DNA of 64,000 nucleotides, taken from positions 1,426,001 through 1,490,000 of the forward strand of contig NZ_CP119423.1 of NCBI RefSeq assembly GCF_029223585.1. Direction: 5' to 3'. Positions 1,331-27,313 of this stretch are shown here, piece after piece (the first letter of the stretch is position 1; each line of letters opens with the position of its first letter). The position numbers were made by a program, and so were the translations under genes. The notes under the pieces were generated by a model, which was given only the letters and a program-made list of their open reading frames with translations, was not told the origin of the DNA and did no database searches. Source of the DNA: Photobacterium sp. DA100 (lineage in GTDB: Bacteria > Pseudomonadota > Gammaproteobacteria > Enterobacterales > Vibrionaceae).

Positions 1331-1347
1331 TACAGGGTTTATTTTTT

Positions 1348-1884: not shown

Positions 1885-1895
1885 AGTGAAAGATC

Positions 1896-12260: not shown

Positions 12261-13055
12261 CTAGTTTCCCTGCGCGCATGTTGGGGCGGGCACAAAGCGG
12301 AAGTTCTTGTACTCGGCCGTCACGGTAGTGGCGGGGTTCTGGCTGAACTCGCCAGCCCAGTTCGAAATCTGATGGTTGGTTGCCCACACATTGGCCATTA
12401 TCCGGAGCCGGCTGTCTGCCGCTGAAGGGGTGGGATCATCGCCGGTGCTCTGCACGCTATGGACTAGCTTGCCATCGATATACCAGCTGATGGCGTCTTT
12501 GGTCCATTTGATACCGTAGCGGTGAAAATCTTGCGAGGCATCAAAATCCAAGTAGATCAGGTGTTCGTGGCTGCGGGCTTGGCTGTCATGGTTGGTCCAG
12601 AAGTTGACTTGCATGACACTGGTATTGTGACCCAAGAACTCGATATCGATTTCGTTGTGCTTGCCATTGCCATCTTCCGGTTTGTCATAAGGGCCTGCAA
12701 ACAGGAAGAACGAGCTGACCACCCCAGGCTCCGCGATTGGTTTCATTTCCACTTCGTAGCAGCCATAACCATAAAACTCATGGCTTCTTAATTCACCTGA
12801 TTGAAATTCAAACTCATCCGCTCCGTTGGGCGAGTGACTCAATGTAATCGCCATACCGTCTGCCGAATGAGAAATGGCTTCCCCCTCCCAGCGGTTGTCG
12901 AACGGAAAGCCATTGCACCAGCCATCGGATTTCCACCAAAGCGCAGTATGTAGTGCCGTAAGGGGATCTGTAATTGAGTTACCAGCAAGCAAAAACGGCG
13001 ACATTGTTAGCATATTGAATAAGCCTGCTGTATGGAGTAGAGATCGTAACGACAT
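12261..13055 (-). CDS. Secreted GH16 beta-glucanase (lichenase/ExoK-like)
   Basis: A 264-residue glycoside hydrolase family 16 enzyme, which cleaves beta-1,3/1,4-type glucans by a retaining mechanism. An N-terminal hydrophobic segment to about residue 25 looks like a signal peptide. The catalytic motif E-I-D-I-E-F is at residues 135-140, with E135 as likely nucleophile and E139 as acid/base. Other lichenase-type landmarks are SDGWCNGFPFDNRW (44-56), ELRSHEFYGYGCYEVEMKP (88-106) and FHRYGIKWTKDAISWYIDG (177-195). It stands beside the polysaccharide genes; in ExoK-type systems such enzymes trim the nascent polymer. It suggests, but does not prove, a glucan with beta-1,3/1,4 links. Confidence 0.85.
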   Translation of the reverse strand: MSLRSLLHTAGLFNMLTMSPFLLAGNSITDPLTALHTALWWKSDGWCNGFPFDNRWEGEAISHSADGMAITLSHSPNGADEFEFQSGELRSHEFYGYGCYEVEMKPIAEPGVVSSFFLFAGPYDKPEDGNGKHNEIDIEFLGHNTSVMQVNFWTNHDSQARSHEHLIYLDFDASQDFHRYGIKWTKDAISWYIDGKLVHSVQSTGDDPTPSAADSRLRIMANVWATNHQISNWAGEFSQNPATTVTAEYKNFRFVPAPTCAQGN

Positions 13056-13184
13056 AAATACTGATCCATGAGAAATAAAAGTGCCAGAACTAAATGTAGC
13101 AGGATTTTTTTGCTCTATAGCTAGAGGGCTGTATTGGATTTGGGACGAAATTTAAAATTGTGCGACAAGGCTTTATAGCGGGCA

Positions 13185-14630
13185 CTAAAGTGCGGCACTG
13201 CTCGGCTTAATGAGCGGAGTAAAGTGACGCTTTTTATACCATAAGGCACTCAAAATCAGGGAGTTGGTGTTAATGTTATAGGCGCTGTTTGGACCGCCAT
13301 TTAGATAGACGCCGGTGGGGATCGCTCGATGTGGCAGACTGTTAGCGACCACCTGTTCGGCAAGTTCGTACCCGAAATCATCACCATCAAATAGTACACT
13401 CAGGGCAAAGGCCGCTTTATTGCTAAAAATTTGCGGGTTTTCGATCGGTTGACCACCAGGTGCGATACTGACCCACGCCTTGCCATAGATATACATATTG
13501 TTGTAAGAAAACCACGGCGATCGGCTCATGGCATCTTCGGCAAATACCCAATAGCTTGCTTCTTTGGCTGATTTTAATTTGTGTAATTCGAATAGGGCAT
13601 TGAGTTGGTTCCACCATTGGTTCTGACTGCCGATCTCTATGCCCAAGAGCACATAGGGATCAGTGGTGAAATAAGCGAGGTTTCTCTGATCAACCAGAAG
13701 CGGTATTCCCTCGACGGTCACTTGTGCGATGTCTTGCTGCTTGTAGGCTGCACTGACATCAAACCCGAACAGTTTATAGCCGTACGCGGCATATTGCAGA
13801 TAGCCAAGCCGGCCTTCTTGGCGGTAGTGGCTATTTTGGCCTGTTTTGAGCTCGCCGTACAATGTGCCCTGGAAAACCGCTTTTTCTAATTGCCACTTGT
13901 CGACAATATGTTGAATCGCGGGTCTGAGCTCCGGTTTGTGTGTTTGGAGTATTTCAAGCCAAATTAATAACCTACCTATATCTAAAGCGGACCAGCCATT
14001 GCCATTGGAGCGGTGAGTGCTAAACCTGCCCGAGGGCTTAGCCGAACGGGTGCTGTACTCCCGGTTAGGCAAAGATTGTTGGTAGAGTGGGAGTGTCAGC
14101 AGGGCATCTAAGGTTTTTGCTAGTTTGTCATTGGCTTGTTCGGTCGTGATGAGAGCCAGTCCTTCGGCAGAAAGTATGGCTGCAATACCGCTGGCGACAT
14201 CCCACATCGTTGTGTGGTGATAGCCTTGGACTGAATTGAAGAGGCCAGTTTTGTCATTCCAATTTTGTTCGAAATAGTAATAGGCTTTTTTGGCAAGCAG
14301 CTTGTCATTTCGGCTAAGGGTGACAGCAGAAAGAGGGGAAGTGGTTAGCTCCGTACGGGAGGGAGTGATAAGCACGAGAGGTGCGGCTTCATTCTTAGAA
14401 GCTTCTTCTTCGTTTGTCATCACGGGGGCGATAGCCCGACGCTGAAATTGGATATCACTGCCTGTGATGCTCTGCTGGTTGGGGATTATACTGCGCGCGC
14501 CATAAAAACTGGGATCACTCTCTTTTGTTTCAGTATCGAAAACAGCATGTACAGAAAGCGGCATCCATGATGCGGCAAGCAGTGTGGCGGTTTGAAGCGC
14601 TTTTCTTGTCTTCCGGGCTGTTTTCAGCAT
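13185..14630 (-). CDS. DUF3131 periplasmic protein (copy A)
   Basis: A 481-residue exported protein. Start MLKTARKTRK (ATG 14630) is chosen because AAGGA lies about 10 bases upstream; a TTG nine bases earlier touches that AAGGA directly. A signal peptide ends near ...MPLSVHA. After a variable 80-residue linker comes a DUF3131 domain: YYYFEQNWNDKTGLFNSVQG, HTTMWDVAS, LPNREYST, GWSALDIGRLLIW, YRQEGRLGYLQYAAYG and GKAWVSI. The pattern of paired helices with W, D and E at loop positions resembles alpha/alpha-toroid carbohydrate-active proteins; activity is not established. Unlike copies B-D it lies on the minus strand and is soluble. Confidence 0.85.
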   Translation of the reverse strand: MLKTARKTRKALQTATLLAASWMPLSVHAVFDTETKESDPSFYGARSIIPNQQSITGSDIQFQRRAIAPVMTNEEEASKNEAAPLVLITPSRTELTTSPLSAVTLSRNDKLLAKKAYYYFEQNWNDKTGLFNSVQGYHHTTMWDVASGIAAILSAEGLALITTEQANDKLAKTLDALLTLPLYQQSLPNREYSTRSAKPSGRFSTHRSNGNGWSALDIGRLLIWLEILQTHKPELRPAIQHIVDKWQLEKAVFQGTLYGELKTGQNSHYRQEGRLGYLQYAAYGYKLFGFDVSAAYKQQDIAQVTVEGIPLLVDQRNLAYFTTDPYVLLGIEIGSQNQWWNQLNALFELHKLKSAKEASYWVFAEDAMSRSPWFSYNNMYIYGKAWVSIAPGGQPIENPQIFSNKAAFALSVLFDGDDFGYELAEQVVANSLPHRAIPTGVYLNGGPNSAYNINTNSLILSALWYKKRHFTPLIKPSSAAL

Positions 14631-14919
14631 TAGGCACAATTCCTTGTCCTGACTATCTAATAAGTTATATCGGTTTAGCTTAGGCGTTGGGATAGTGCAC
14701 TTTATATACTGAGTGAAAATGTGACGTTAATCGCGTCATAACCCTATGATGCCTCATTAATTATCTGAACCTTTGCCATTGATGTTTATTTACGCGTCCT
14801 ATAATTGATACGGAAGCTGGCGGCAACAGGACGTCGTTAAAGGTCGTGTTCAGGCTGAACTGAGCTAGATGACTTGGCCTGGGCATTGCCATACAGGGAG
14901 CGTGATAAGTGGTGGGGCT

Positions 14920-15189
14920 ATGGCATTTGATATTGTCTTTTGGTTTTTCTTTTATTTGGCGTTTTTCTGTCTATCGACCTACTTGGGTTACCAAAAAGGG
15001 AATTTGATAGCGGGTATTTTACTGGGGTATGTCCTGGGCCCGATTGGCGCCTTGCTGATGTTTATGAGTAAAGATAGAAAGCATATTACCTGCCCGTCAT
15101 GCCATGCTGAAATCAATAGGCGTGCGTATATTTGCCCCAAGTGTCATGTGAAAATCGGAATAAAATCAGAAGCGGTGCGGGAGGAATGA
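14920..15189 (+). CDS. Small membrane protein with zinc ribbon
   Basis: From the ATG at 14920 an 89-residue protein: two hydrophobic segments (IVFWFFFYLAFFCLSTYLGY and LIAGILLGYVLGPIGALLMF) followed by a cytoplasmic tail with C-P-S-C and C-P-K-C pairs that make a zinc ribbon. Starts at 14869 or 14902 in the same frame are possible; none has a clean ribosome-binding site. Similar small proteins of unknown role occur in marine gammaproteobacteria. It sits between two convergent polysaccharide-locus genes but may be unrelated to them. Confidence 0.65.
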   Translation: MAFDIVFWFFFYLAFFCLSTYLGYQKGNLIAGILLGYVLGPIGALLMFMSKDRKHITCPSCHAEINRRAYICPKCHVKIGIKSEAVREE

Positions 15190-15218
15190 GGTGAAACAAA
15201 TCTGCCTGTGTCTCTCAA

Positions 15219-16223
15219 TCAAAAAGAAAAAGAGTAGGCGAGGGTAACAGAGCCATCTTTAAATCGCCCTGTGTCGTCGGCGCGGTCGGATGAATTCCAT
15301 CGGTTTCCAGAGTAGTTGTTGTACTGGATGGTAATTGTGCCAGGCCGCCAGTCGAAATAGCCAAAGCCATAGGTATAGTCTGGGTTCCAGGGCTGCTGTT
15401 GTGAACTGTCAAAGTAATAAAAGGCAGTACCGTTAACATACCAGTTGCCATAGATGGAGTACTTGCAACCCAGGCTGAGGGTTTTATGGCCTGTCATGTA
15501 GGAGGTGGTGTCGAGGTCGAAATACTCATGGGTGTAGTTGAAGTCAATTTGACAGCCAATGGCCCCCTCATCGGTAAAGGTGAACCAGCTTTTTACTGGG
15601 TCGACGACAGGAAACTTCCAGCCCAGCGACCACGTCCCTTGATCGAAGTTGGTAACAGGTTGCTCATTAGTGGCCTTAAAACGGTTACCACCATAATTGG
15701 CATAAACGAGGCTCAAGGTATAGGGACGCCAATCACTGTAACCGAACACATAGGTAAAGTCTGGATTCCAGGGTTGCTGCTGTTCTCTGTCCCAATAGTG
15801 ATAGAGTGTGCCGGAGATAAACCAGTTACCTAATACCGTGTACTTGAGTGAGAGGGTGGTGGTCATATTGGTATTGACTGGTACATTCGTCGCGTTGACT
15901 GGGATATTGGCCGCAGGGGTGTCGATGAGAGGGTAACCAATCCCAAGACTGCCACTCAGACCATGCAGGAAAGACTTATCCTCATTGTTGTCCCACTCTT
16001 CGAAAGGAAAGTAGAAGGAGCTCGACACGCCTTTCCAGATTAAATTCGCTTCTGATGTCTCTTGGTCTTCTTCAACAACGGTGTGTTTTACAGCCTTGGT
16101 TAATGATGGCGAGCTGGGTGCCTGAGCGTGTTTGCGTGTTTCGCTCATATACTCATCGGCCATGCAGGGCATAGCTAAAGGCAGAAGCAAAAGAAACACA
16201 CTGAAACAACGCAAGCCTATCAT
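15219..16223 (-). CDS. Outer-membrane beta-barrel-like protein with internal duplication
   Basis: A 334-residue protein. The ATG at 16223 is preferred to an upstream TTG because it gives a clean signal peptide (MIGLRCFSVFLLLLPLAMPCMA, then DEYM) with GGAA before it. The mature part alternates polar and aromatic residues and ends in phenylalanine (TLAYSFSF), the usual barrel-assembly signal. Two long blocks repeat: GNWFISGTLYHYWDREQQQP-WNPDFTYVFGYSDWRP and GNWYVNGTAFYYFDSSQQQP-WNPDYTYGFGYFDWRP, each ending N-Y-x-G-N-R. I do not recognise a named family. Its place in the polysaccharide island suggests an export pore or a surface polymer-binding barrel. Confidence 0.65.
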   Translation of the reverse strand: MIGLRCFSVFLLLLPLAMPCMADEYMSETRKHAQAPSSPSLTKAVKHTVVEEDQETSEANLIWKGVSSSFYFPFEEWDNNEDKSFLHGLSGSLGIGYPLIDTPAANIPVNATNVPVNTNMTTTLSLKYTVLGNWFISGTLYHYWDREQQQPWNPDFTYVFGYSDWRPYTLSLVYANYGGNRFKATNEQPVTNFDQGTWSLGWKFPVVDPVKSWFTFTDEGAIGCQIDFNYTHEYFDLDTTSYMTGHKTLSLGCKYSIYGNWYVNGTAFYYFDSSQQQPWNPDYTYGFGYFDWRPGTITIQYNNYSGNRWNSSDRADDTGRFKDGSVTLAYSFSF

Positions 16224-16459
16224 TCTTGTATTCCGAGGGAGCAACAACTTCTAGTTGTGGCGCTAATCAAAAGCAAAGTAAACCAGTTGCAAGTGATTTT
16301 TTGAGGTAACAGACAGAAAAGAAACATTTTTTTTGTGTGCCTAGTTAAACTTACTAGAATGTATGTGTAATTTAAATTAATTACATATCGGTTGGTGTTG
16401 GGAAATTGCTATGCAGCAATGTGTTTAAGCATGATCGGCATAGTCTCACTGGTGATTCA

Positions 16460-17719
16460 ATGAAGAAACTCTTGCTGGTTGACGATAACAGAACCATGCT
16501 CCTTTTCATGGAAAAGGTGCTGTCCAAGCGTGGGTTTGACGTCATTACGGCCAGTGATGGTATGCATGCATTGCAAGTTTTGGGCGACAGGCAAGATATC
16601 CAGTTTGTGTTGAGTGATTGGATGATGCCGGAAATGGACGGTATCGAATTGTGCTCAAGGGTGAAAGCGGCGGATTACGGGCGCTATTTGTTCTTCATGT
16701 TGTTATCAGGCAAAGACGACAAGGAGTCTATCGTCAGCGGCATCAATGCTGGGGCTGATGACTTTGTGGTCAAAGATACCCATGTCGATGAGTTGGTGGC
16801 TCGCATTGAGGCGGGGTTTCGGACATTGGCACTGCACAATGAAATCACGGCCAAGAATGATGCATTAGACAATGCGTACGCCACCATGAAAAAGGATTTG
16901 GAATCGGCGGGTGAGTTGCTCAAGCGTTTATTGCCGACTGAAAACACCATGTCTGGCGTAGAGCTGAGTTATGTTTCTATTCCTAGCGCACAAATCGGCG
17001 GGGATATGCTGGGCTACATGAAACTGGACGAGGAGCATGTTGCCATTTATTTATTGGATGTCGCCGGTCACGGAGTGTCATCGGCACTGTTGTCTTTTTC
17101 TGTTCAGCAAAGTATCGCGGTGACCTCTGGAAATAGCGCGATTGTCAAAACGGTATCGGATGAGCCGCCATTCTACCGCATAAGCCAGCCCCATGAGGTT
17201 CTGAAACGCCTTAACGAGCAATACATCACCAACGATCAGAACTTACTCTATTTCACTATGGCTTATGCCGTACTGAATATTAAGACTGGCAAAATGGCTT
17301 TTTCTGTTGCAGGCCACCCGCCGCTGATTTGGTTGCATTCCCAGCGCGAAGAAGCTGAGTTGATTGGCCAGCACAGTTTTGTGGTTGGGGCATTTGATTT
17401 TGTCGAATATGAAACCTCGTATATCCAGCTTGAGCCTGGCGATAAAGTATGGATGTATTCTGACGGGATCACCGAGGCAGAAAAAGACAATGAAATGTTT
17501 TCGGAAGAAGGTTTGCGAAAATTGGTTGTTCAATTGAATGAGCAGCCAACGACGTTACAAACAGAGTTGCTGGTAAACAGTGTAAGAGATTGGCAGCAGG
17601 CTGAACAGTTTGCAGATGATGTCAGTGTGCTTGTTATTGAATGGAAGGGCAATCCAGAAAGGGAGCAGTTATGCGATATGAAACTATCTACCAAGGTCAA
17701 TGCACGGTTCTTCAAATAA
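16460..17719 (+). CDS. Response regulator with SpoIIE-type PP2C phosphatase
   Basis: A 419-residue soluble signalling protein. Residues 1-120 form a receiver domain: acidic pair D8-D9, phospho-acceptor D53 in FVLSDWMMPEMDG, and K105. Residues 130-170 form a helical linker. The rest is a PP2C/SpoIIE serine phosphatase with the metal-binding motifs Q-I-G-G-D-M, LLDVAGHG, VAGHPP, MYSDGITEA and ADDVSVLV. It most likely removes phosphate from the STAS protein encoded next, with which it overlaps by 49 bases. ATG at 16460 is chosen because the receiver domain starts there; an upstream start adds 18 non-conserved residues. Confidence 0.93.
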   Translation: MKKLLLVDDNRTMLLFMEKVLSKRGFDVITASDGMHALQVLGDRQDIQFVLSDWMMPEMDGIELCSRVKAADYGRYLFFMLLSGKDDKESIVSGINAGADDFVVKDTHVDELVARIEAGFRTLALHNEITAKNDALDNAYATMKKDLESAGELLKRLLPTENTMSGVELSYVSIPSAQIGGDMLGYMKLDEEHVAIYLLDVAGHGVSSALLSFSVQQSIAVTSGNSAIVKTVSDEPPFYRISQPHEVLKRLNEQYITNDQNLLYFTMAYAVLNIKTGKMAFSVAGHPPLIWLHSQREEAELIGQHSFVVGAFDFVEYETSYIQLEPGDKVWMYSDGITEAEKDNEMFSEEGLRKLVVQLNEQPTTLQTELLVNSVRDWQQAEQFADDVSVLVIEWKGNPEREQLCDMKLSTKVNARFFK

Positions 17720-18003
17720 AAGAAGAGCGATTTGATGCCAAGCTGGCACCGAGTTTCAGGAAAGAGGTCGAAAAACTATCGCCGAGCATTGGCACTCATT
17801 TAGTGCTTGATTTATCAGCCGTCCGATTTATGGATAGCAGTGGCCTGGGTGCTGTGATGGCAGTGTATAAAATGCTGCGTGGCAAGAAAGTCTGCGTGGT
17901 CAACCCGCAGCGTGCGGTCCAAGAGTTGCTCAAACTTACGCGTATGGACAAGCTTATCACCCGTTACGATTCCATTGAAGATGCCATTGCAACAATAGCT
18001 TAG
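17671..18003 (+). CDS. STAS-domain anti-sigma-factor antagonist
   Basis: A 110-residue single STAS domain. ATG 17671 follows a strong AAGGGAG and lies inside the end of the phosphatase gene, so the two are translationally coupled. The phosphorylatable serine is in FMDSSGLGAVMAVY (motif D-S-S-G-L-G). In partner switching the unphosphorylated STAS protein binds the kinase (149-residue HATPase protein encoded at 19214) or another target, and phosphorylation releases it. No sigma factor is encoded nearby, so the output may be direct control of polymer production, as known for SypA in Vibrio fischeri. Confidence 0.92.
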   Translation: MRYETIYQGQCTVLQIKEERFDAKLAPSFRKEVEKLSPSIGTHLVLDLSAVRFMDSSGLGAVMAVYKMLRGKKVCVVNPQRAVQELLKLTRMDKLITRYDSIEDAIATIA

Positions 18004-18014
18004 AGGAGTATGGC

Positions 18015-19196
18015 ATGAAAGGGATGATCCTCGCCGCAGGGAAGGGAACACGTGTTAGGCCGATTACACAGATAATCCCGAAACCGATGATCCCAATTTT
18101 GGGTAAGCCAGTTATGGAGTCAATGATTCAGCTGTTTGCATCGCACGGTATTGACAAGATTGTAGTTAATACTAGTCACTTGGCTGAGGTTATCGAGAAT
18201 TATTTTGGCGATGGCCATCATTTCAACGTACAGCTTTCATTTTCCTATGAAGGGGAAATTGTCGACGGCCACTTTGTCAGCAAGGCATTGGGCTCGGCGG
18301 GAGGGATGAGAAAGATCCAGGACTTCTCTGGCTTTTTTGACGAGACCTTTGTCGTTGTCTGTGGTGATGCTTGGATAGATTTGGACCTGACCGAAGCGGT
18401 ACGCCGCCATAAACAACATGGTGGTATTGCCACCATTGTCACTCGGGATGTGGCATTGGAAGAAGTCTCGAAATATGGTGTGGTTGTTACCGATAATTAC
18501 GGCAAGGTAACCAGCTTCCAAGAAAAACCGTCAGTGGAAGCGGCACTATCTACTCAGATCAATACCGGTATTTATATTTTTGAGCCAGCGATTTTTGATT
18601 ATATCCCGGCCGCGCAGGAATATGATATTGGCAGTGAGCTATTCCCTAATCTTGTGGAAAGTAAGGTCGACTTTTATGCGACTAGTATGGATTTCCAGTG
18701 GCTGGATGTTGGTAATATTAGTGATATCTGGACGGTAACCAGCGACATCATGAAAGGGAAAGTGCCGGGATATCCTATTCCTGGTACTCAGGTTAAGCCC
18801 GGGATCTGGGTTGGCATCAATACAGTGTTTGATATAAATAGCTGCACTATCACCCCTCCGGTTATTGTCAGTAGTGGTTGTGAAATACAGCCTGGGGCAA
18901 CTATTGAAGGCCCGGCAGTGATCGGTGCTAATAGTAAAGTAGAATCAGGAGCGGTGATAAAACAAAGTTTGGTGAGCGAGTATATCCATATTGCTTCGGC
19001 TGCTTTTGTGGAAGAAAAAACCGTATTTGGTGATTACTTTATCAGTCATGATGGTTATACCCAGTCACTAAAGGAACTCAAAGCGGTGAATATCCTCAAT
19101 GACAGGCGCCAAGTACAGTCAATGATGGGGACGTTAGGCAATATTTCGACTTATATTCCTTCAGAATTTGATGGTGAGGAAGAAATTCTTAACTAA
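18015..19196 (+). CDS. Sugar-phosphate nucleotidyltransferase with left-handed beta-helix
   Basis: A 393-residue enzyme of the NDP-sugar pyrophosphorylase family. The N-terminal domain has MKGMILAAGKGTRVRPITQI with the nucleotide-binding G-x-G-T-R and the K of PKPMIPILGKP. VVVCGDAWIDLDL carries the metal-binding aspartate, and FQEKP and INTGIYIFEP bind the sugar. The last 130 residues contain hexapeptide repeats (VIVSSGCEIQPGATIEGPAV-type). It resembles mannose-1-phosphate guanylyltransferases and glucose-1-phosphate thymidylyl/uridylyltransferases; substrate is not certain. It is placed between the STAS and anti-sigma-kinase-like genes and probably supplies activated sugar to the synthase. 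Confidence 0.85.
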   Translation: MKGMILAAGKGTRVRPITQIIPKPMIPILGKPVMESMIQLFASHGIDKIVVNTSHLAEVIENYFGDGHHFNVQLSFSYEGEIVDGHFVSKALGSAGGMRKIQDFSGFFDETFVVVCGDAWIDLDLTEAVRRHKQHGGIATIVTRDVALEEVSKYGVVVTDNYGKVTSFQEKPSVEAALSTQINTGIYIFEPAIFDYIPAAQEYDIGSELFPNLVESKVDFYATSMDFQWLDVGNISDIWTVTSDIMKGKVPGYPIPGTQVKPGIWVGINTVFDINSCTITPPVIVSSGCEIQPGATIEGPAVIGANSKVESGAVIKQSLVSEYIHIASAAFVEEKTVFGDYFISHDGYTQSLKELKAVNILNDRRQVQSMMGTLGNISTYIPSEFDGEEEILN

Positions 19197-19213
19197 TTAG
19201 GTAAGGGCTACCA

Positions 19214-19663
19214 ATGGATATAGTTACTGAGCGGTTTAGTAAGCAGTACAGTAGTTCCCCAGATGTATCGCGTGAAATTGCTGCAGATATGCAAGAATAC
19301 TTGCAGCATAACCAAATTTCACAGGAGATCATTGATCAAGTTGAGCTGTGCCTGGTGGAAGTGGTGAATAATGCCTATGAACATGCTTATCAGTATTCCA
19401 ACCAGTTACCGATCGAAAGCTCTTGCTTTTTTAACTCCAACAATGAATTGGTCTTTGAAGTGTCAGATTATGGCAAGTCAATGAGCAAGGAGGAATTTAA
19501 TCGTGCAATAAACGGTGAATTTATAGAGCCAGATCCTGATGACCCTGAAACATGGGCAACATCGGGGAGGGGATTTATTATCGTTATGCAGCTTACTGAT
19601 AATCTTGAATATATTAAAAATGGTAACAAGAACACGTTTAAACTGTTAAAACGCGCGGAATAA
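19214..19663 (+). CDS. RsbW-like serine kinase (HATPase, anti-sigma type)
   Basis: A 149-residue protein with a single GHKL ATPase domain. Motifs: N box ELCLVEVVNNAYEHAY, G1 box VFEVSDYGKSM, G2 box TSGRGFIIVMQLTDN. This is the size and layout of RsbW/SpoIIAB-type kinases that phosphorylate STAS antagonists. With the phosphatase and STAS protein it completes a partner-switching trio. AAGGG precedes the ATG. It is the last gene before a 164-base gap and the synthase gene, so the regulatory genes and synthase may have separate promoters. Confidence 0.9.
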   Translation: MDIVTERFSKQYSSSPDVSREIAADMQEYLQHNQISQEIIDQVELCLVEVVNNAYEHAYQYSNQLPIESSCFFNSNNELVFEVSDYGKSMSKEEFNRAINGEFIEPDPDDPETWATSGRGFIIVMQLTDNLEYIKNGNKNTFKLLKRAE

Positions 19664-19827
19664 GCGTTAAATAAAGGAAATATGAGAATAATACGGTATT
19701 ACCGTCATTAACATTATTTTCTAGCGCCTCTTTGCTTTGATAAAATGACTGGTGTGTTAATAGCTAATCATTAAATGGAAACTGGCACCACGCCTAGGTT
19801 GATCACGATTCATCGGAGTGAAAACTC

Positions 19828-21693
19828 ATGGATTTTTATTTCAAGGAGTTCGAACATCGAAAGCCACCGGAGCCGGTGCCTTATAGTATGTCGAGAGAAT
19901 TACTCTATCAGTATCTTGCTACCTGTAATCTCACACTGGGTGTGTGGTATTTGTGGTGGCGTTGGACCTATGCCTTGAACTACGAGGCTATGTGGTTCTC
20001 TTTTCCACTGGTATTTGCCGAGTCCTGTGCCTTCATCGGGTCTGTGCTATTCACATTTAATTTATGGAAGACCCAGGATGAACCGAATAAACCGCCCCCG
20101 CATACCATAAATGAGTGTGTGGACAAAGACAGCCCCGAGGCTACTGAAACTAGGCCGATCAGTATTGATGTGTTCTTTCCGAGTTATGATGAAGAGCCCG
20201 AGTTGGTCAGGCTGAGTATCGAAGATGCGAAGAAGATACGCTATCCCCATGATATCGATATAAAGATATTTATTCTCGACGATGGCAAGCGACCCACAAT
20301 GCAGGCGCTGGCTGAAGAGATGGGCGTTGAGTACATAACCCGGGAAAGTAATATTGGTTTTAAGGCGGGAAACCTGCGCAATGCCCTCGAGCAGACATAC
20401 GGTGACTTTATTGTGATTTGTGATGCCGATACCCGTCCGTTCCCAACCATTCTGGAGCATACCATGGGTTATTTCCGTGACCCGGACGTGGCTTGGGTTC
20501 AGACACCGCAATGGTTCTTTGACTTGCCAGAGGGAGAGCGCCTGCCACATTGGCTGCAGCGTAAGCTGGGTAAATGGGCAGCGCCGTTAGGCCGCGGGTT
20601 TGAGAAGTTCTATGGACCGGTGAAAATTGGCGAAGACCCATTTGTTAACGATCCCCAAATGTTCTATGACGTTATTCAGCGCCGCCGTAATTGGGTGAAT
20701 GCTTCTTTCTGTTGCGGTGCGGGATCGATCCATCGCCGCGAGGCGGTCATGGAAGCGGCACTTCGTAGTTACAGTGAACAAATTAGCAAAGAGCATAAGG
20801 AGATCGAGAAGCAGATCCGTAAGATCACCAAAGAGAAAACGCTTGACCAGGATGTGTCTGATAACCTGCGCCAAGAAATCATTTTCGATACCGAGTTCAC
20901 CCCCTATAAATTCCATGTATCGGAAGATATCTACACCTCTATCGTGTTGCATTCGGATACCGAAAGGAACTGGCGTTCGGTGATGCACCCCGAAGTGGAA
21001 AGTAAGATGCTGTCACCGCAGGATCTCCAGACATGGACAGTGCAGCGATTCAAATATTCCGGTGGCTCGATTGATATCTTTATGAATGACAATCCATTGT
21101 TTAGGAAGGGGATGAGCCTCAAGCAGAAAATGATGTATGGTGCCAGCTTCTGGTCAAACTTGTCGGCCGTTTGGAATATCATTTTCCTTGCCTGTCCTAT
21201 TATATATTTCCTGACCAGTATCGCGCCGGTGAGTGCTTATGACGTGACTTTCTATTTGCACTTTATACCATTTGTGCTCACGGCTGAATTGGCCATGATG
21301 GTTGGTACCTGGGGAGTAGCAGGGTATAAAGGTAAAACCAATTTCCTTTCTTTCTTCCCTGTTAATATGCGGGCGCTTTGGACGGTTCTCCGTGGCCGTA
21401 AAATTAGTTTCCCGGCAACCCCAAAAGAGAGACAGCATGGCACCTTTGGACACTTGGTCATACCGCAGAAGCTGGTCTTTGGTCTGAGCTTATTCAGTAT
21501 GTGCTTCGCATGGCTCTGTTATTTTACCGGCATGTTTGGCAGCTATTCTATTGGCGGTTTGATATTCAACAGTTTTTGGACAATCAACAACATGATGGCG
21601 ATGTGGGGGATGATTGCTGCGGCATATTGGACGCCGCCACCGGCAGGCAAGACGCAGGAACAGGGAGCGGAGGAATTGGAATATGGAATTTAA
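19828..21693 (+). CDS. Cellulose-synthase-like processive glycosyltransferase (GT2)
   Basis: A 621-residue inner-membrane synthase. Two membrane segments (about 30-80) precede a GT-A domain, with further membrane segments near 440-600. Catalytic motifs: D151-D152 in FILDDGK, D-A-D at 199-201, FCCGAGSIHRREA at 294-306, and S-E-D at 365-367. The expected Q-x-x-R-W appears as Q-R-F-K-Y (406-410). About 55 residues rich in E and K (313-362, probable coiled coil) are inserted between the FCCGAG and SED motifs. There is no C-terminal PilZ domain. CGGAG precedes the ATG. It likely polymerises a beta-glucan or related sugar from a nucleotide donor and extrudes it; the exact sugar is unknown. Confidence 0.88.
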   Translation: MDFYFKEFEHRKPPEPVPYSMSRELLYQYLATCNLTLGVWYLWWRWTYALNYEAMWFSFPLVFAESCAFIGSVLFTFNLWKTQDEPNKPPPHTINECVDKDSPEATETRPISIDVFFPSYDEEPELVRLSIEDAKKIRYPHDIDIKIFILDDGKRPTMQALAEEMGVEYITRESNIGFKAGNLRNALEQTYGDFIVICDADTRPFPTILEHTMGYFRDPDVAWVQTPQWFFDLPEGERLPHWLQRKLGKWAAPLGRGFEKFYGPVKIGEDPFVNDPQMFYDVIQRRRNWVNASFCCGAGSIHRREAVMEAALRSYSEQISKEHKEIEKQIRKITKEKTLDQDVSDNLRQEIIFDTEFTPYKFHVSEDIYTSIVLHSDTERNWRSVMHPEVESKMLSPQDLQTWTVQRFKYSGGSIDIFMNDNPLFRKGMSLKQKMMYGASFWSNLSAVWNIIFLACPIIYFLTSIAPVSAYDVTFYLHFIPFVLTAELAMMVGTWGVAGYKGKTNFLSFFPVNMRALWTVLRGRKISFPATPKERQHGTFGHLVIPQKLVFGLSLFSMCFAWLCYFTGMFGSYSIGGLIFNSFWTINNMMAMWGMIAAAYWTPPPAGKTQEQGAEELEYGI

Positions 21694-23005
21694 GCAGGCA
21701 GCCGTTAACGCACGGCATCATATTGTCTTTTTGCTGGGGCTTTTTACTGCACTCGTCATTGCGTTCAATATTGAAACCCGTGACTACGGCCGTATTTTAG
21801 GCAACATGACCTTCGAGGCAACGGAAGAGATCCCGGCTCGCCAGAGCCGCGTGCTAACCGAAGAAGAGTTTGAATGGGCCAATACGGCTTGGGCTTATTT
21901 CGAAAATAACTACCAGGAAAATACCGGGTTGGTGAACTCGGTGGACGGCTATCCGTCAACCACCATGTGGGACACGGCCTCCTATCTTATGGGGCTATTG
22001 GCAGCAGAAAAGTTAAACATTATCAGCCAGAGTACTTTCGAACTGCGGATGGAAAAAGCGCTGCAGACGCTAGCTCGCCTCCCCTTGATTGATGGCAAGT
22101 TGCCGAACAAAGCCTACAACACCCAATCCATTGAAATGGTGGATTACCAGAATAACCCGGTTGAAAATGGAATTGGCTGGTCGGCCATAGATATTGGTCG
22201 CATCTTGGTCCCCCTGAATATTCTGGTGTGGCAGTACCCGCGTTTTAATGCCCAAGTGAACGCAGTATTAAACCACTGGGATGTGGGGGCGATGATCAAG
22301 GATGGCTATCTGTATGGTTCGCGCCCGCTGCAAAATGGTGGGGCTGAAATGGAACTGGTACAGGAAGGACGTATCGGGTACGAAGAATATGCGTCGAAAG
22401 CGATGTCCTTAATGGGGCGGGATGTGTTCAACGCAATGAAATATATCGACTATCTGGAAATGCAGAATATCGATGGCGTAGATATTCCAACTGACTTGCG
22501 AGACCCGGCGAAATTCCACGCCCATAACTATGTGGTCAGCGAGTCTTACATCCTTGATGGCTTGGAGTTTGGTGCGGACAGTGTGTCAAAGATTTTTGCC
22601 CACCGTGTTTACAAAGCGCAGGAAAACCGCTTCGAGCGGACTGGAGTTCTGACCGCGGTCAGTGAGGACAACGTCGACGAAGCGCCTTACTTTGTCTACA
22701 ACACTGTATTTTCCGACGGCAAAGCATGGAATGCGATCACTGACCAAGGTGAGGACGCGTCACACCTCAAGACGCTGTCGACCAAAGCGGCGTTTGGTTG
22801 GTATGCCCTGTATGACACGCCTTATACCAAGCTGTTGATTGAAGATGCGAGAGATTTATTCTCAAAAGAGAAGGGCTGGTATTCAGGCCGCTATGAGGAT
22901 GATGGCCGGGTGAATAAAGCAATAACCGCGAATACCAATGGGATTGTTCTGGAATCACTTGCTTATATCGAAAATGGAGCCTTGCTGAGTGTGGGCGTAA
23001 GGTAA
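21683..23005 (+). CDS. DUF3131 membrane-anchored protein (copy B)
   Basis: A 440-residue protein. ATG 21683 with GGAGGAATT upstream overlaps the synthase end by 11 bases, implying coupled translation. One membrane segment (HHIVFLLGLFTALVIAFNI, about 14-32) anchors it in the inner membrane, with the rest periplasmic. DUF3131 landmarks: WAYFENNYQENTGLVNSVDG, STTMWDTAS, LPNKAYNT, GWSAIDIGRILVP, VQEGRIGYEEYAS, YVVSESYILDGLEFG, SDGKAWNAI and NTNGIVLESL. Tight coupling with the synthase suggests it receives the nascent chain, filling the place BcsB has in cellulose systems. That is inference. Confidence 0.85.
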   Translation: MEFKQAAVNARHHIVFLLGLFTALVIAFNIETRDYGRILGNMTFEATEEIPARQSRVLTEEEFEWANTAWAYFENNYQENTGLVNSVDGYPSTTMWDTASYLMGLLAAEKLNIISQSTFELRMEKALQTLARLPLIDGKLPNKAYNTQSIEMVDYQNNPVENGIGWSAIDIGRILVPLNILVWQYPRFNAQVNAVLNHWDVGAMIKDGYLYGSRPLQNGGAEMELVQEGRIGYEEYASKAMSLMGRDVFNAMKYIDYLEMQNIDGVDIPTDLRDPAKFHAHNYVVSESYILDGLEFGADSVSKIFAHRVYKAQENRFERTGVLTAVSEDNVDEAPYFVYNTVFSDGKAWNAITDQGEDASHLKTLSTKAAFGWYALYDTPYTKLLIEDARDLFSKEKGWYSGRYEDDGRVNKAITANTNGIVLESLAYIENGALLSVGVR

Positions 23006-23031
23006 ACCGCAACTGTGATAGGGAGTATCAA

Positions 23032-24444
23032 ATGCGTTATATCATTGCCTGCCTTATAGGGATTTTGACGACGGGCTGCGGCAACAAATACAGCAGCTTT
23101 TCCGATGATGTGGTGGACAGGAAAAGTCACTGGACTACCCCAAAACCACGTCAGGGCCAGTTGACAGAACAAGAAATGGATATGGCCCGTATTGCCTGGA
23201 AATATTTTGAGAATAACTATCAGGAGTCCACGGGGCTGGTCAATGCGGTGAATAACTATCCTTCTGTGACCTGGTGGGATGCCGCGTCTTATATGGCGGG
23301 TATGGTTAGTGCCTATGAATTAGGGATCATCGAAAAAGAGGAGTTTAATCGCCGCCTTATTCGTATTTTAACCACCTTGAACACGCTTGATTTGTTCATG
23401 AATGAGTTGCCGAACAAAGCCTATAACACCCAAACGGCGGCCAAAGTGGATTATGGCAACCAACCCGGAGAGATTGGTTATTCGGCGCTTGATCTTGGCC
23501 GCTTGTTGATTTGGCTGCATATTATCAAGCACCGCTATCCTGAATATGCGAGCAGTATCGACTCGGCGGTATTGCGTTGGAATTTCTGTAACGTGGTCGA
23601 TGAAAATGGCACTATGTTCGGTGCGTTGCTGGAGAAAGGCAAACCTGTTCAGTACTTACAGGAAGGTCGCTTGGGTTATGAAGAGTATGCCGCAAAAGGG
23701 TTTGAACTATGGGGCTTTGATACCACCCAGGCGGCAATGGCGGAGCCGTACAGCACCATTAACCTCTATGGCTACGATGTACCATACGACACCCGTGATC
23801 CTCGTAAACTGAAAGCACACAGCTACGTGGTAACCGAAAGTTATGTTCTTGATGGTATCGAATTGGGGTGGGACTTGGCGGATGACCGCTCAGCTCATGA
23901 CTATAAATATTCCAATGACTGGATTGCGGAATTTGCCCTGCAGATTTACCGTGTCCAGGAAGAACGCTATAAGCAAACTGGTATTATTACAGCCCGTACC
24001 GAGCACCAGTTAGCAGGGCCTCCTTACTTCGTGTACGACACTATTTATACCGATGGTTTTGCTTGGAATACCATTTCAGAAGCAGGCGAATACCTCCCGC
24101 AGTACGCTGCGGTAGCCATCAAGGGGGCAATGGGGATGTGGGTGTTGTGGGATACCGACTATACCGACTTGTTGTTTGATCACGTTGCGCATTTGTACGA
24201 CCGTGAAAAAGGGTTTTATGAGGGGATATTTGAAAACGGTACCGGCTTGATCAATACCTTTACCTCAAACAATAACGGTATCACCTTAGAAATCTTGCTA
24301 TATAAACAACAGGGTAAGCTGCTTACCTATAAAGACAATGTTGCCCCCAGCTTGTGGGAAAAGGCGCTGGATTCCCCGTTTGGCTATGAAGGGCAGTGCC
24401 TGCCTCGTCGAGGGGCATCCAATAGCAAGCTCAAACAGCCGTAG
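23032..24444 (+). CDS. DUF3131 lipoprotein (copy C)
   Basis: A 470-residue protein with a lipoprotein-type signal (MRYIIACLIGILTTG before C17, then GNKY). The residue after cysteine is glycine, so sorting to the outer membrane is expected. The domain repeats the family pattern: WKYFENNYQESTGLVNAVNN, SVTWWDAAS, LPNKAYNT, IGYSALDLGRLLIW, LQEGRLGYEEYAA, YVVTESYVLDGIELG, TDGFAWNTI and NNNGITLEIL. GGGAG lies before the ATG. It is 26 bases after copy B and 11 before copy D. The lipobox T-T-G-C is slightly off consensus. Confidence 0.83.
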   Translation: MRYIIACLIGILTTGCGNKYSSFSDDVVDRKSHWTTPKPRQGQLTEQEMDMARIAWKYFENNYQESTGLVNAVNNYPSVTWWDAASYMAGMVSAYELGIIEKEEFNRRLIRILTTLNTLDLFMNELPNKAYNTQTAAKVDYGNQPGEIGYSALDLGRLLIWLHIIKHRYPEYASSIDSAVLRWNFCNVVDENGTMFGALLEKGKPVQYLQEGRLGYEEYAAKGFELWGFDTTQAAMAEPYSTINLYGYDVPYDTRDPRKLKAHSYVVTESYVLDGIELGWDLADDRSAHDYKYSNDWIAEFALQIYRVQEERYKQTGIITARTEHQLAGPPYFVYDTIYTDGFAWNTISEAGEYLPQYAAVAIKGAMGMWVLWDTDYTDLLFDHVAHLYDREKGFYEGIFENGTGLINTFTSNNNGITLEILLYKQQGKLLTYKDNVAPSLWEKALDSPFGYEGQCLPRRGASNSKLKQP

Positions 24445-24455
24445 AAAGGAATAGG

Positions 24456-25835
24456 ATGTTGAGAAGTGCGGTGATTGCAGTTGGCATATTCTGCCTGACG
24501 TCTTGTGGTGTGGTCTATCAAGGTGTTCAAAGCGGGATGAATACGGTTAACGAGTCGCAGATGCTGCGTCAGGGACGGTATGGCTCGTTAACCGAGCAGG
24601 AGCTGGAATGGGCGAAAATTGCCTGGACTTACGTAGAGAACAATACCAATCACGCGACCGGATTGGTGAATGCCGTGGACAATTACCCCACGACCAACCT
24701 CTCTAATCTGGCTGATTACCTGATTGCCATGATGGCGGCCCGTGAATTTGAATTTATCACCAGCAAAGCGCATGACGAGCGTTTGACGCTGGTGCTCGCA
24801 TTTCTCAATCAAATGCCACTGGGCTTAACCGGGGTACCCAACAAGGTCTATAGCACCAGCACCGGTATGATGGTTGATTACGCCAACCAGCCTGGTGAAT
24901 TGGGCTGGTCATCGATTGATGTAGGTCGGCTGTTGATCGCCCTGGCGATGGTCAAACAGCGTAACCCTGAATTTTCCGAGTATGTCGACAAAGCCGTTTT
25001 ACGCTGGAACTTCTGCGAGTTAGTTACCCCAGAAGGGGAGCTTTACGGCGCGACAATCAGTAATGAGTATGTCCATCGCTACAAAGAAGGGCGGCTAGGA
25101 GTTGAAGAGTATACAGCCTACGGTTACCTTGATTGGCAAATCGTGCCGGAAAAAGCCATGATGCTAGAGCCATATGAGGTGGTCACAATAAACGGTATTG
25201 ATTTGTTGTTTGATGGCCGTGATCCCCGTGATTACGATGTGCTTCGTCCCGTCTACAGTACGCCCTATTTGCTGCTAGGCCTGGAGTTTAACTGGGATGA
25301 GATTGACGATATTCGTTCGTCTGATGCCAAGCACACTAATGACGTACTGGCTGCGATGGCTGATTCTGTATACCGTATTCAGGAGTCCCGCTGGGATGTC
25401 GAACGTATTTATACTGCACGCGGGGATCATGTCGTGGCAGGTGAACCATATTTTGTCTACGACAGTATCTATGCGCTTGGTACACCTTGGATCACGGTGG
25501 CTGAAGATGGGAGTTCCCATGATGATAAGGCGCTGGTGTCCACCCGGGTAGCCTTCCAAATGTGGGCATTGTGGAAAACAGATTACACCGAACGGTTATT
25601 GACACTAGTACGTGAACTTTACGATCCAGGGCGTGGTTGGTACGAGGGGCGCTACGAGCTGACCAGCGGTTACGAAAAAAGTATTTCATTGCAAACCAAT
25701 GCGGGGGTACTGGAAGCTTTGTTATACAAGGCTAATGGTAAGCTCTACCAGCCGTCAACAGAGCGTGAATACCGTGATGTCCAATTCAACTCACGTTTTT
25801 ACCATCCTCAAAAATGCTTGGTTAAGACTTTCTGA
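24456..25835 (+). CDS. DUF3131 lipoprotein, diverged (copy D)
   Basis: A 459-residue protein with a good lipobox L-T-S-C (signal MLRSAVIAVGIFCLTS). Glycine at +2 again points to the outer membrane. The framework is conserved (WTYVENNTNHATGLVNAVDN, VPNKVYST, GWSSIDVGRLLIA, YKEGRLGVEEYTAYG, TNAGVLEAL). But the T-x-W-D tetrad present in copies A-C is replaced by N-L-S-N (after NYPTT), and the S/T-D-G-x-A-W of B and C reads A-L-G-T-P-W. This looks like a copy that keeps the fold and may have lost a key acidic residue. AAGGAATAGG precedes the ATG. Confidence 0.82.
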   Translation: MLRSAVIAVGIFCLTSCGVVYQGVQSGMNTVNESQMLRQGRYGSLTEQELEWAKIAWTYVENNTNHATGLVNAVDNYPTTNLSNLADYLIAMMAAREFEFITSKAHDERLTLVLAFLNQMPLGLTGVPNKVYSTSTGMMVDYANQPGELGWSSIDVGRLLIALAMVKQRNPEFSEYVDKAVLRWNFCELVTPEGELYGATISNEYVHRYKEGRLGVEEYTAYGYLDWQIVPEKAMMLEPYEVVTINGIDLLFDGRDPRDYDVLRPVYSTPYLLLGLEFNWDEIDDIRSSDAKHTNDVLAAMADSVYRIQESRWDVERIYTARGDHVVAGEPYFVYDSIYALGTPWITVAEDGSSHDDKALVSTRVAFQMWALWKTDYTERLLTLVRELYDPGRGWYEGRYELTSGYEKSISLQTNAGVLEALLYKANGKLYQPSTEREYRDVQFNSRFYHPQKCLVKTF

Positions 25836-25933
25836 TGCATAGGCTGAGCTAATTAGATGCGGCTGTTTGTGTGTTCACATTCTTGATATCTTTCTTGTAA
25901 AGAAGTTTATAAAAAATAATTACCTTGCGAGAT

Positions 25934-26056
25934 ATGAACATGAAAAATAACACACTGAATGTAATTGGTGGCGCAAAAGGTTTGTCATTCTTATCGCTCT
26001 TACTAAGCTTAATTTACACCCTGTTGTTAGGGGAGGGGAGTAGCGGAGAGGGATAA
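25934..26056 (+). CDS. 40-residue membrane microprotein
   Basis: A short frame, MNMKNNTLNVIGGAKGLSFL and on to SLLLSLIYTLLLGEGSSGEG, with one hydrophobic segment of about 17-20 residues and a glycine/serine tail. The stop is three bases before the next ATG, and that gene's AGAGGGA ribosome site lies in the microprotein's last codons, so the two would be translated together. A second ATG is two codons in. Only a weak purine patch precedes the start. I recognise no family; small single-pass proteins such as BcsF accompany cellulose synthases. Reality needs proteomic or comparative support. Confidence 0.5.
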   Translation: MNMKNNTLNVIGGAKGLSFLSLLLSLIYTLLLGEGSSGEG

Positions 26057-26059
26057 TCA

Positions 26060-27313
26060 ATGACAGCATCAGAAATAATTGTTCAACAAGCTTTTGATGA
26101 CGCCAGTGATTTTTTTGATTTAACCGAAAAACAACATCAACAACGGTTATTGAGACTTGCCAATATATTATATTGTTTAACTGATCTTACGACGGATTAT
26201 TATAAGCAGCTGGCATCTTTAGATAATTGCCCTCTCGAGTTTCGTTTGGCTGTGAAATTAGTTGAGTCCAAACGTTATGTGCTCAAATTAAATCGACCTT
26301 TATTAGTCGGTGTTGTATTTGCCATGTGGGGTGAACATCACCGTTTAAATCAGAAATCTCCGTTGAATCCAAATGGTGAAGATTCACTGCGGATTAAAAT
26401 TGATCAGCTCAACTGGATCACCATGGGCTCGATGGTGGACTGGCATTTATATCCGGTCGATGATGGCTGTCCACATGACAGTGCGGGCATTGCCAAAGAA
26501 ATTCTTGCCAACCACCCAGATAAACACAGGGTGTCCGTTTTGCGCCTTGCCGACAAACTGCCCGCTTCAGCGGGCCCGTTGAAGGATCTGGCGTCGACCG
26601 ACGACTCCCGTAAAGGGGGGGCGATCATACTGGGCTGCCAGCAAGCCTTGTCCGATAAGGCTGATTGTGTGGTGTATACCGATGCTGATAGCTCTGTTCA
26701 TTTGGGACAGTTAGGCTTACTGCTGAAACCTTACATGTCAGAGAATGCCAAAGTGGTGCTGGGTAATCGTAAACATCCGGACTCTATTTTGGTAAAGCAA
26801 GAGGAACGCTGGGGGGTAGGGATCAAAACATTGCGCCATATGCAGCGCATGATAGGGCGCGCAATATTCAGCAATAATATCAAAGATACCCAGGCGGCGT
26901 TTAAGTTATACGATCGCGAAGTTATCCGTTATATTTTGGCCAAACCGTCGGTCTATGATTTTTCGTTTGATACCGATTGGATCTTTGCGGCAATGAAGGG
27001 GGAATACCCATTACTGACGGTGCCTTTTGCCTTCATAGATTCTGCCGCAGAGTCGGCGTCTCTCGTCCAGGGACCGACCACAACCTGGTATACCTTATTA
27101 AGTGGTTTGGCAACGGCGGCCAAACTGCGGGAAGTGGATCATAACCACGAGATGGTGAGGATTTTTGAAGACCATATTCACAGTCATGAGGATCTTGATC
27201 ACATCATTGATATCCTGCCGGAACAGCTTGAAGGTATTCCTGATGGAGATATTGGTAACCCGCTTATTTTTGCTCCGCATGAGCTAGAAGAGTGGTTGGT
27301 AAAACGAAAGTAG
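26060..27313 (+). CDS. GT2 glycosyltransferase, ALG5/polyprenyl-phosphate-hexose-like
   Basis: A 417-residue soluble glycosyltransferase with a GT-A core in the middle: LVGVVFAMWGE at the first strand, LYPVDDGCPHDSA (first acidic pair), VVYTDADSS (D-x-D), VVLGNRKHPDS, NIKDTQAAFKLYDREV and FDTDWIFAAMKG. The D-T-Q-x-x-F-K-L and F-D-x-x-W/L pattern is that of ALG5-type dolichyl/polyprenyl-phosphate glucosyltransferases and their relatives. It carries an extra 80-residue helical N-terminus and a D/H-rich tail, and has no membrane segment. It may prime a lipid carrier or make a glycosylated co-substrate for the synthase. It is the last gene of the plus-strand polysaccharide run. Confidence 0.7.
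   Translation: MTASEIIVQQAFDDASDFFDLTEKQHQQRLLRLANILYCLTDLTTDYYKQLASLDNCPLEFRLAVKLVESKRYVLKLNRPLLVGVVFAMWGEHHRLNQKSPLNPNGEDSLRIKIDQLNWITMGSMVDWHLYPVDDGCPHDSAGIAKEILANHPDKHRVSVLRLADKLPASAGPLKDLASTDDSRKGGAIILGCQQALSDKADCVVYTDADSSVHLGQLGLLLKPYMSENAKVVLGNRKHPDSILVKQEERWGVGIKTLRHMQRMIGRAIFSNNIKDTQAAFKLYDREVIRYILAKPSVYDFSFDTDWIFAAMKGEYPLLTVPFAFIDSAAESASLVQGPTTTWYTLLSGLATAAKLREVDHNHEMVRIFEDHIHSHEDLDHIIDILPEQLEGIPDGDIGNPLIFAPHELEEWLVKRK

What the first reader, a model, noticed from the sequence alone, without database searches (positions are those of the whole stretch)
12261..27313. Unusual cellulose-synthase-like exopolysaccharide island with four DUF3131 proteins
A GT2 synthase, four DUF3131 paralogues, a lichenase-type GH16, a duplicated outer-membrane barrel, a nucleotidyltransferase, an ALG5-like transferase and a partner switch lie in one 15-kb block. 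BcsB, BcsC, BcsZ and PilZ are absent. Cues seen: motifs as described for each gene. Family knowledge: GT2 synthases polymerise; GH16 lichenases cut beta-1,3/1,4 glucan. Inference: an envelope-spanning secretion machine for a glucan, in which DUF3131 proteins take the place of BcsB/BcsC. I know no named system with this set.
Basis: partly seen in the sequence, partly recalled or inferred. Interest (0 to 1): 0.88.

Follow-up and report, generated by a model that had tools for sequence, protein, structure and literature searches.

The report
Unusual bacterial glucan-making gene cluster
A widespread, apparently unstudied bacterial gene cluster pairs an unusual cellulose-synthase-like enzyme with periplasmic proteins that resemble the ring-closing part of cyclic-glucan synthase, and probably makes and trims a beta-glucan under control of a protein-phosphorylation switch.

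Summary
The set is conserved: in 247 sampled Vibrionaceae genomes the synthase occurs in 38 and DUF3131 in 39, 38 shared; of 80 synthase loci 76 carry DUF3131 and 74 STAS.

Best reading: a synthase-dependent beta-glucan machine whose anchored and secreted DUF3131 barrels bind, cut or re-join the nascent chain, switched by phospho-signalling instead of PilZ/c-di-GMP. Linkage, destination and DUF3131 catalysis are untested. Three held papers contain the term DUF3131; the passages I saw assign no function. New variant of a known kind.

The parts
12261..13055 (-). GH16 beta-glucanase, lichenase type (EIDIE motif)
   Evidence: PF00722 E 1e-34; best PDB 1gbg (1,3-1,4)-beta-glucanase E 1.9e-37; relative in 19 of 20 system-holding Vibrionaceae genomes examined
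13185..14639 (-). DUF3131-A; candidate general-acid position is Gln (Gln in 16 of 17 A sequences)
   Evidence: PF11329 E 5.8e-94. Start codon uncertain
14869..15189 (+). small protein, weak zinc-ribbon match and hydrophobic segments; variable companion
   Evidence: PF12773 E 7e-4, below its cut-off; hydropathy; start uncertain
15219..16247 (-). outer-membrane beta-barrel, 12 predicted strands, internal duplication; homologue also in Enterobacterales
   Evidence: AF2 pLDDT 76.8; PLA1 in 14 of 34 relatives, best E 1.2e-5; duplication, and Salmonella-plasmid homologue E 1.9e-93
16406..17719 (+). response regulator + SpoIIE-type PP2C phosphatase (partner switch)
   Evidence: PF00072, PF07228; GGD, DVAGHG, DGITE, DDVS motifs
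17641..18003 (+). STAS protein (anti-sigma-factor-antagonist type) with DSSG site; an in-frame ATG at 17671 may be the true start (my reading)
   Evidence: PF01740 E 1.2e-16
18015..19196 (+). sugar-1-phosphate nucleotidyltransferase, probably UDP-glucose pyrophosphorylase
   Evidence: PF00483; 8x7s E 8.5e-127 over residues 1-371
19214..19663 (+). HATPase (RsbW/SpoIIAB-like) of the partner switch
   Evidence: PF13581 E 4.6e-19; EVVNNAYEH
19828..21693 (+). GT2 synthase: DDG, DAD, SED, KAG, QTPQ and FxxTPK kept; QRFKY in place of QxxRW; no PilZ listed
21683..23005 (+). DUF3131-B, N-terminal helix 2-38 (anchor), start overlaps the synthase stop
   Evidence: PF11329 E 1.7e-147; model m46757c593471
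23032..24444 (+). DUF3131-C, lipoprotein-like N-terminus; keeps all candidate acids
   Evidence: PF11329 E 7.6e-126
24456..25835 (+). DUF3131-D, lipoprotein-like N-terminus; E328 position is Asp
   Evidence: PF11329 E 3.8e-97
   Evidence: PF00535 E 3.6e-8; no PDB sequence match at 1e-3; relative in 40 of 80 loci

Best explanation
A synthase-dependent beta-glucan system. UDP-glucose made by the nucleotidyltransferase is polymerised and pushed through the inner membrane by a PilZ-less BcsA-type GT2. In the periplasm the chain meets DUF3131 barrels: one anchored in the inner membrane next to the synthase (B), two lipoproteins (C, D) and one soluble (A), which bind, trim or transglycosylate it, as the related cyclisation domain does in cyclic glucan synthase. 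GH16 (and, in relatives, GH9 and GH2) enzymes cut the product, which leaves through or is held at the 12-strand outer-membrane barrel. A PP2C-STAS-HATPase partner switch turns the machine, or its expression, on and off instead of c-di-GMP/PilZ. Shown: gene content, conservation, predicted folds, motifs. Inferred: glucan product, linkage, DUF3131 catalysis and location, route through the outer membrane, what the switch acts on.
Against: No biochemistry was found. The C-terminal half of DUF3131 gave no profile match alone (E 0.36); the match to a GH144 set was not significant (E 0.01, probability 4%). General acid and nucleophile are placed by motif, not by coordinates. The candidate general acid is Gln in 16 of 17 DUF3131-A and not Glu in 29 of 81 DUF3131-B (one of them a gap). 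Four of 80 loci have synthase and STAS but no DUF3131. The closest barrels act on beta-1,2-glucan, whereas GH16/GH9 suggest beta-1,3/1,4. NT, second GT, GH16, GH9 and GH2 are not universal. phmmer counts of RR are loose, since any receiver domain can match.
Confidence: 0.6

Rival explanations
1. One reading: a secreted exopolysaccharide machine in which DUF3131 proteins are non-catalytic export/scaffold parts in place of BcsB and BcsC.
For: DUF3131-B has an anchor helix and usually overlaps the synthase gene; C and D look like lipoproteins (47 of 72 and 36 of 55); Gln at the candidate general-acid position in DUF3131-A and many B; the outer-membrane barrel is found in 58 of 80 loci.
Against: DUF3131 has a glycosidase/transglycosylase-type barrel fold; DUF3131-C keeps E235 in 70 of 72.
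Confidence: 0.2
2. A periplasmic (osmoregulated-type, possibly cyclic) glucan system: a split, periplasmic counterpart of cyclic glucan synthase, not an exopolysaccharide system.
For: Homology to the Cgs cyclisation domain; OpgC-type acyltransferase in 6 of 80 loci and on the Salmonella and one of two Pantoea plasmids viewed; OpgG not found in this genome and in 5 of 247 Vibrionaceae; four DUF3131 proteins form a module in a Shewanella piezotolerans salt-shock network (PMC8371737, passages seen).
Against: Two sampled genomes hold both OpgG and the system (G168; G523), so it is not a simple substitute; an outer-membrane barrel and secreted endo-glucanases fit an extracellular product; in Cgs the cyclisation domain is part of one polypeptide of about 2,800 residues, cytosolic as I recall.
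Confidence: 0.3
3. A divergent but ordinary cellulose (beta-1,4-glucan) system.
For: Best NCBIfam match is CelA; the 6 PDB sequence matches are BcsA-type; GH9 in 16 of 80 loci; several relatives are annotated as cellulose synthase.
Against: QR[FY]KY instead of QxxRW in 81 of 81; CelA score 197 against a cut-off of 699; no BcsB found; a relative of a lichenase-type GH16, which as I recall does not cut cellulose, in 19 of 20 Vibrionaceae genomes examined.
Confidence: 0.12
4. A mixed-linkage beta-1,3/1,4-glucan like the Bgs polymer of Sinorhizobium, made by a different synthase branch.
For: GH16 of lichenase type in or near the cluster; GH9 in relatives; Sphingobium version carries its own GH16.
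Against: No linkage data; BgsA keeps QxxRW (PMC6821405, passages); no GH16 relative at E 1e-20 in 4 of 4 Shewanella and 3 of 4 Ferrimonas genomes examined; beta-1,2-type barrels unexplained.
Confidence: 0.25

Closest known systems
[quoted passage not shown]
   Different: Here separate secreted or anchored proteins, mostly two to four copies, beside a BcsA-type GT2; no phosphorylase domain in the window's cluster; catalytic residues not proven
SGL clan beta-1,2-glucanases (GH144, GH162, GH192-194)
   Same: Same barrel; acidic residue at the D170 position by motif (PMC12102758, passages)
   Different: Sequence similarity below significance for the GH144 set; those are described as stand-alone hydrolases, not synthase partners
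Bacterial cellulose synthesis (bcs)
   Same: BcsA-type GT2, synthase gene followed by a gene for an anchored periplasmic protein, endo-glucanase in the neighbourhood
   Different: No PilZ on the synthase, no BcsB, QR[FY]KY, DUF3131 barrels, partner switch
Mixed-linkage glucan system (bgs)
   Same: PilZ-less BcsA-type GT2, probable beta-glucan
   Different: BgsA has QxxRW (PMC6821405, passages) and binds c-di-GMP by its C-terminal tail (PMC5567048, passages)
Osmoregulated periplasmic glucans (OpgGHC)
   Same: OpgC homologue in some clusters
   Different: No OpgG found in this genome; synthase of BcsA type

Membership tests
Canonical bcs cellulose system | GT2 with D, D, D, QxxRW signature | tested here: not met
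   QRFKY in 75 and QRYKY in 6 of 81
Canonical bcs cellulose system | PilZ domain on the synthase | tested here: not met
   Pfam scan of the synthase lists GT2-type domains only
Canonical bcs cellulose system | BcsB | tested here: not met
   PF03170 0 matches in the whole genome; of 14 control genomes it rings in 2, E. coli included
Canonical bcs cellulose system | BcsC and BcsZ (GH8) | tested here: inconclusive
   None listed for 40 window ORFs; rest of the genome not searched
SGL clan / GH189 (for DUF3131) | (alpha/alpha)6 barrel of this type | tested here: met
   (predicted model of DUF3131-B only)
SGL clan / GH189 (for DUF3131) | Sequence homology to GH189 | tested here: met
   E 5.7e-6, E 1.6e-8; about the N-terminal 60-90 columns only
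SGL clan / GH189 (for DUF3131) | General-acid Glu (E1356 in TiCGS) | tested here: inconclusive
   By motif E235: Glu in B, C, D of the window, Gln in A; no coordinate superposition at residue level was available
SGL clan / GH189 (for DUF3131) | Nucleophile Glu (E1442 in TiCGS) and transglycosylase activity | tested here: inconclusive
   Conserved E328 (Asp in 15 of 55 D paralogues) is a motif guess; activity not testable here
Cyclic glucan synthase (Cgs) | One protein with GT, cyclisation and phosphorylase domains | tested here: not met
   Separate genes; no phosphorylase domain listed for the window's cluster proteins
OPG system (OpgGH) | OpgG | tested here: not met
   PF04349 0 matches in the genome; of 14 controls it rings in E. 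coli only
Mixed-linkage glucan (BgsA) | QxxRW synthase | tested here: not met
Mixed-linkage glucan (BgsA) | Product with 1,3 and 1,4 linkages | not testable with these tools
   needs polymer chemistry
SpoIIE/STAS/HATPase partner switch | PP2C motifs, STAS phospho-site, HATPase N-box | tested here: met
   what these motifs mean is recalled

The most novel reading that the evidence does not exclude
DUF3131 proteins are periplasmic anomer-retaining transglycosylases, a new glycoside hydrolase family related to GH189, that close into rings or re-join the glucan as it emerges from a GT2 with a new QR[FY]KY acceptor motif: a split, extracytoplasmic counterpart of cyclic glucan synthase, controlled by a phospho partner switch, with some paralogues turned into glycan-binding pseudo-enzymes.
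Probability: 0.28. Interest if true: 0.82.

Novelty: new variant of a known kind. Interest (0 to 1): 0.6.

Why it matters
It gives a fold, a family and a testable role to DUF3131, and outlines a polysaccharide system found in Vibrionaceae, Shewanella, Ferrimonas, Paracoccaceae, Methylococcales and Enterobacterales, partly on plasmids (Pantoea, Salmonella); a Klebsiella accessory block listed in PMC12974863 (passages) has the same gene types. The synthase branch offers a natural test of what the QxxRW motif does in beta-glucan synthases, and of how such enzymes are controlled without PilZ.

Tried and rejected
GH9-GH16 replacement: within the fetched flanks GH9 (16 of 80 loci) and GH16 (10 of 80) never shared a locus, and the tree put the GH16-bearing window among GH9-bearing Photobacterium, which suggested swapping. 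A whole-genome check refuted it: 19 of 20 Vibrionaceae genomes examined, GH9 bearers included, hold a GH16 relative. Judged by coordinates it lies just past the flank in L006 (about 0.4 kb) and L011, and some 8-15 kb past it in L005, L008, L010, L012 and L033. Dropped.

OpgG substitution: too few OpgG genomes in Vibrionaceae (5 of 247, one shared) to show avoidance; at class level 41 of 274 have OpgG, and the one other genome with the system is among them. No support.

DUF3131 against a GH144 profile (E 0.01), its C-terminal half against Cgs (E 0.36), and against the genome's own two weak glycoamylase-type ORFs (E 0.39, 0.057) gave nothing significant. Of the 14 other Pfam families listed at E up to 10 for the 50 members, none bears a glycosidase name.

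E. coli: no megablast match of the Salmonella-plasmid synthase-DUF3131 stretch; diverged copies would be missed. Ordinary cellulose operon disfavoured on the motif, BcsB and PilZ.

Literature: DUF3131 occurs in 3 held papers, PF11329 in none. In the listings of the other searches I saw no title or abstract start that describes the system. The library lacks most subscription papers.
Full report
1. What is there. The window lies in a 6.01-Mb, two-contig genome; its synthase is nearest to that of Photobacterium rosenbergii (95% identity). I did not establish the species. Four DUF3131 matches, all in this cluster, were found in the genome. BcsB and OpgG were not found. DUF3131-B carries an N-terminal helix; C and D have lipoprotein-like starts (LTTGC and LTSC, my reading; a lipobox-like pattern in 47 of 72 C, 36 of 55 D, 3 of 78 B and 2 of 17 A sequences); A has a signal-peptide-like start (my reading).

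2. Conservation. A scan of representative genomes with the synthase gave 80 loci (95 confirmed, the best 80 kept, so distant members are under-represented). Neighbours were called by phmmer from the window's proteins, so distant homologues may be missed and response-regulator counts are loose. Of 80 loci: DUF3131 76, STAS 74, RR 70, OM barrel 58, HATPase 49 (13 alphaproteobacterial loci hold a further group that I read as HATPases), nucleotidyltransferase 47, second GT 40, a 333-aa protein without Pfam match 38, GH2 28, GH9 16, GH16 10, OpgC 6 (names). Of the six loci without STAS four are cut by contig ends or short flanks (L013, L049, L072, L082) and two are Edwardsiella (L078, L080). Four loci (L076, L081, L083, L084) have synthase and STAS but no DUF3131 and fall on one side of a branch. 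In 247 sampled Vibrionaceae genomes DUF3131 occurs in 39 and the synthase in 38, all 38 among the 39; the odd one has a partial DUF3131. In 274 genomes spread over the class, 9 match PF11329; only 2 are full-length, and the synthase is in those same 2, one being the window's own genome. The other seven matches are partial and N-terminal, five of them in ORFs of 1,771-2,925 aa, which I take to be Cgs-like (not verified). PF11329 rang in 0 of 14 control genomes.

3. Plasmids. 17 plasmid records encode a relative at E 1e-60: Pantoea 8, Paracoccus 2, Salmonella 2, and one each of Vibrio, Rhodobacteraceae, Pseudooceanicola, Chimaeribacter and Sphingobium. I viewed four. The conjugative Salmonella plasmid and the Pantoea piersonii plasmid show HATPase, STAS, SpoIIE, a 'hypothetical' protein, OpgC, synthase, three DUF3131, a response regulator and a GH2-sized gene (annotated GH2 in Salmonella, sugar-binding in Pantoea piersonii); the Salmonella 'hypothetical' is an OM-barrel homologue (E 1.9e-93). 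Pantoea stewartii is similar, with an insertion element beside the switch and neither OpgC nor STAS listed in an incomplete gene table. Sphingobium has synthase, switch, PilZ protein, BcsS and GH16 but no DUF3131 listed within 10 kb.

4. The synthase. It keeps DDG, DAD, SED, KAG, QTPQ and FxxTPK (80 or 81 of 81 for the first five, the exceptions being gaps). A study of BcsA, CrdS and BgsA found KAG, QxPH/Q and FxVTxK fully conserved, together with QxxRW (PMC6821405, passages). QxxRW itself is QRFKY (75) or QRYKY (6) in all 81 sequences here. In BcsA the Trp of this motif stacks on the acceptor glucose (same passages), so a Tyr there may alter acceptor handling; that is inference. No PilZ domain is listed.

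6. The rest. The OM protein is predicted as a 12-strand barrel (my count) and ends in Phe; fold matches are near-ties. The nucleotidyltransferase is closest to a UTP-glucose-1-phosphate uridylyltransferase, which points to UDP-glucose as donor. RR-PP2C, STAS and HATPase carry the expected motifs. Their near-constant presence with a PilZ-less synthase suggests that they replace c-di-GMP control, directly or through transcription; that is inference.

7. Polymer. A relative of the lichenase-type GH16 is in 19 of 20 Vibrionaceae genomes examined, 0 of 4 Shewanella and 1 of 4 Ferrimonas (28 genomes chosen by me from the 80 loci; vibrios without the system were not examined, so linkage to the system is not proven). 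GH9 and GH2 add to a beta-glucan picture; OpgC in some clusters and the Cgs kinship hint at a periplasmic or substituted oligosaccharide. These clues do not agree on linkage, and I leave it open.

8. Literature. Three held papers contain DUF3131: a Klebsiella population study listing cellulose synthase, three DUF3131, OpgC and regulators in one accessory block (PMC12974863, passages); a Shewanella network study with four proteins in a DUF3131 module under salt shock (PMC8371737, passages); a Brucella transcriptome listing BMEI1837 as DUF3131 protein (PMC6382750, passage), which I recall to be cyclic glucan synthase. The passages seen give no function.

Noticed in passing
window 14-3268: Possible phage-tail genes at the left edge: 1348-1881 matches the HP1 ORF34 baseplate family; the three neighbouring ORFs scanned have no Pfam match.
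   Followed up: no
L110, L076, L081, L083, L084: Alphaproteobacterial versions with the synthase and partner-switch genes but no DUF3131 found nearby; the Sphingobium one adds BcsS, GH16 and a PilZ protein.
   Followed up: partly
L085, L086 (own genome, C2:1661131 and C1:1870224): Two ORFs of about 450-480 aa match the Glycoamylase family weakly, below its cut-off, and carry an ANESR motif; perhaps beta-1,2-glucanases of the GH192 kind.
   Followed up: partly
L038 and L039 (Shewanella abyssi contig NZ_JAKIKR010000010.1): Two copies of the cluster with identical synthase sequences lie on one contig in opposite orientation, the synthase genes about 24 kb apart.
   Followed up: no
L018:15990-16991 and relatives in 37 other loci: A 333-aa protein without Pfam match often sits between DUF3131-D and the second GT; in the window only about 220 bases separate those two genes.
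   Followed up: partly
L107, L108: A globin gene follows the DUF3131 genes on a Pantoea stewartii and a Salmonella plasmid.
   Followed up: no
G057:C2:1248978-1250839: The synthase gene of one Vibrionaceae genome matches in two overlapping pieces, as if broken.
   Followed up: no
L073, L074, L077: A gene of the glycogen-phosphorylase family lies beside OpgC in Yersinia and Budvicia clusters.
   Followed up: no
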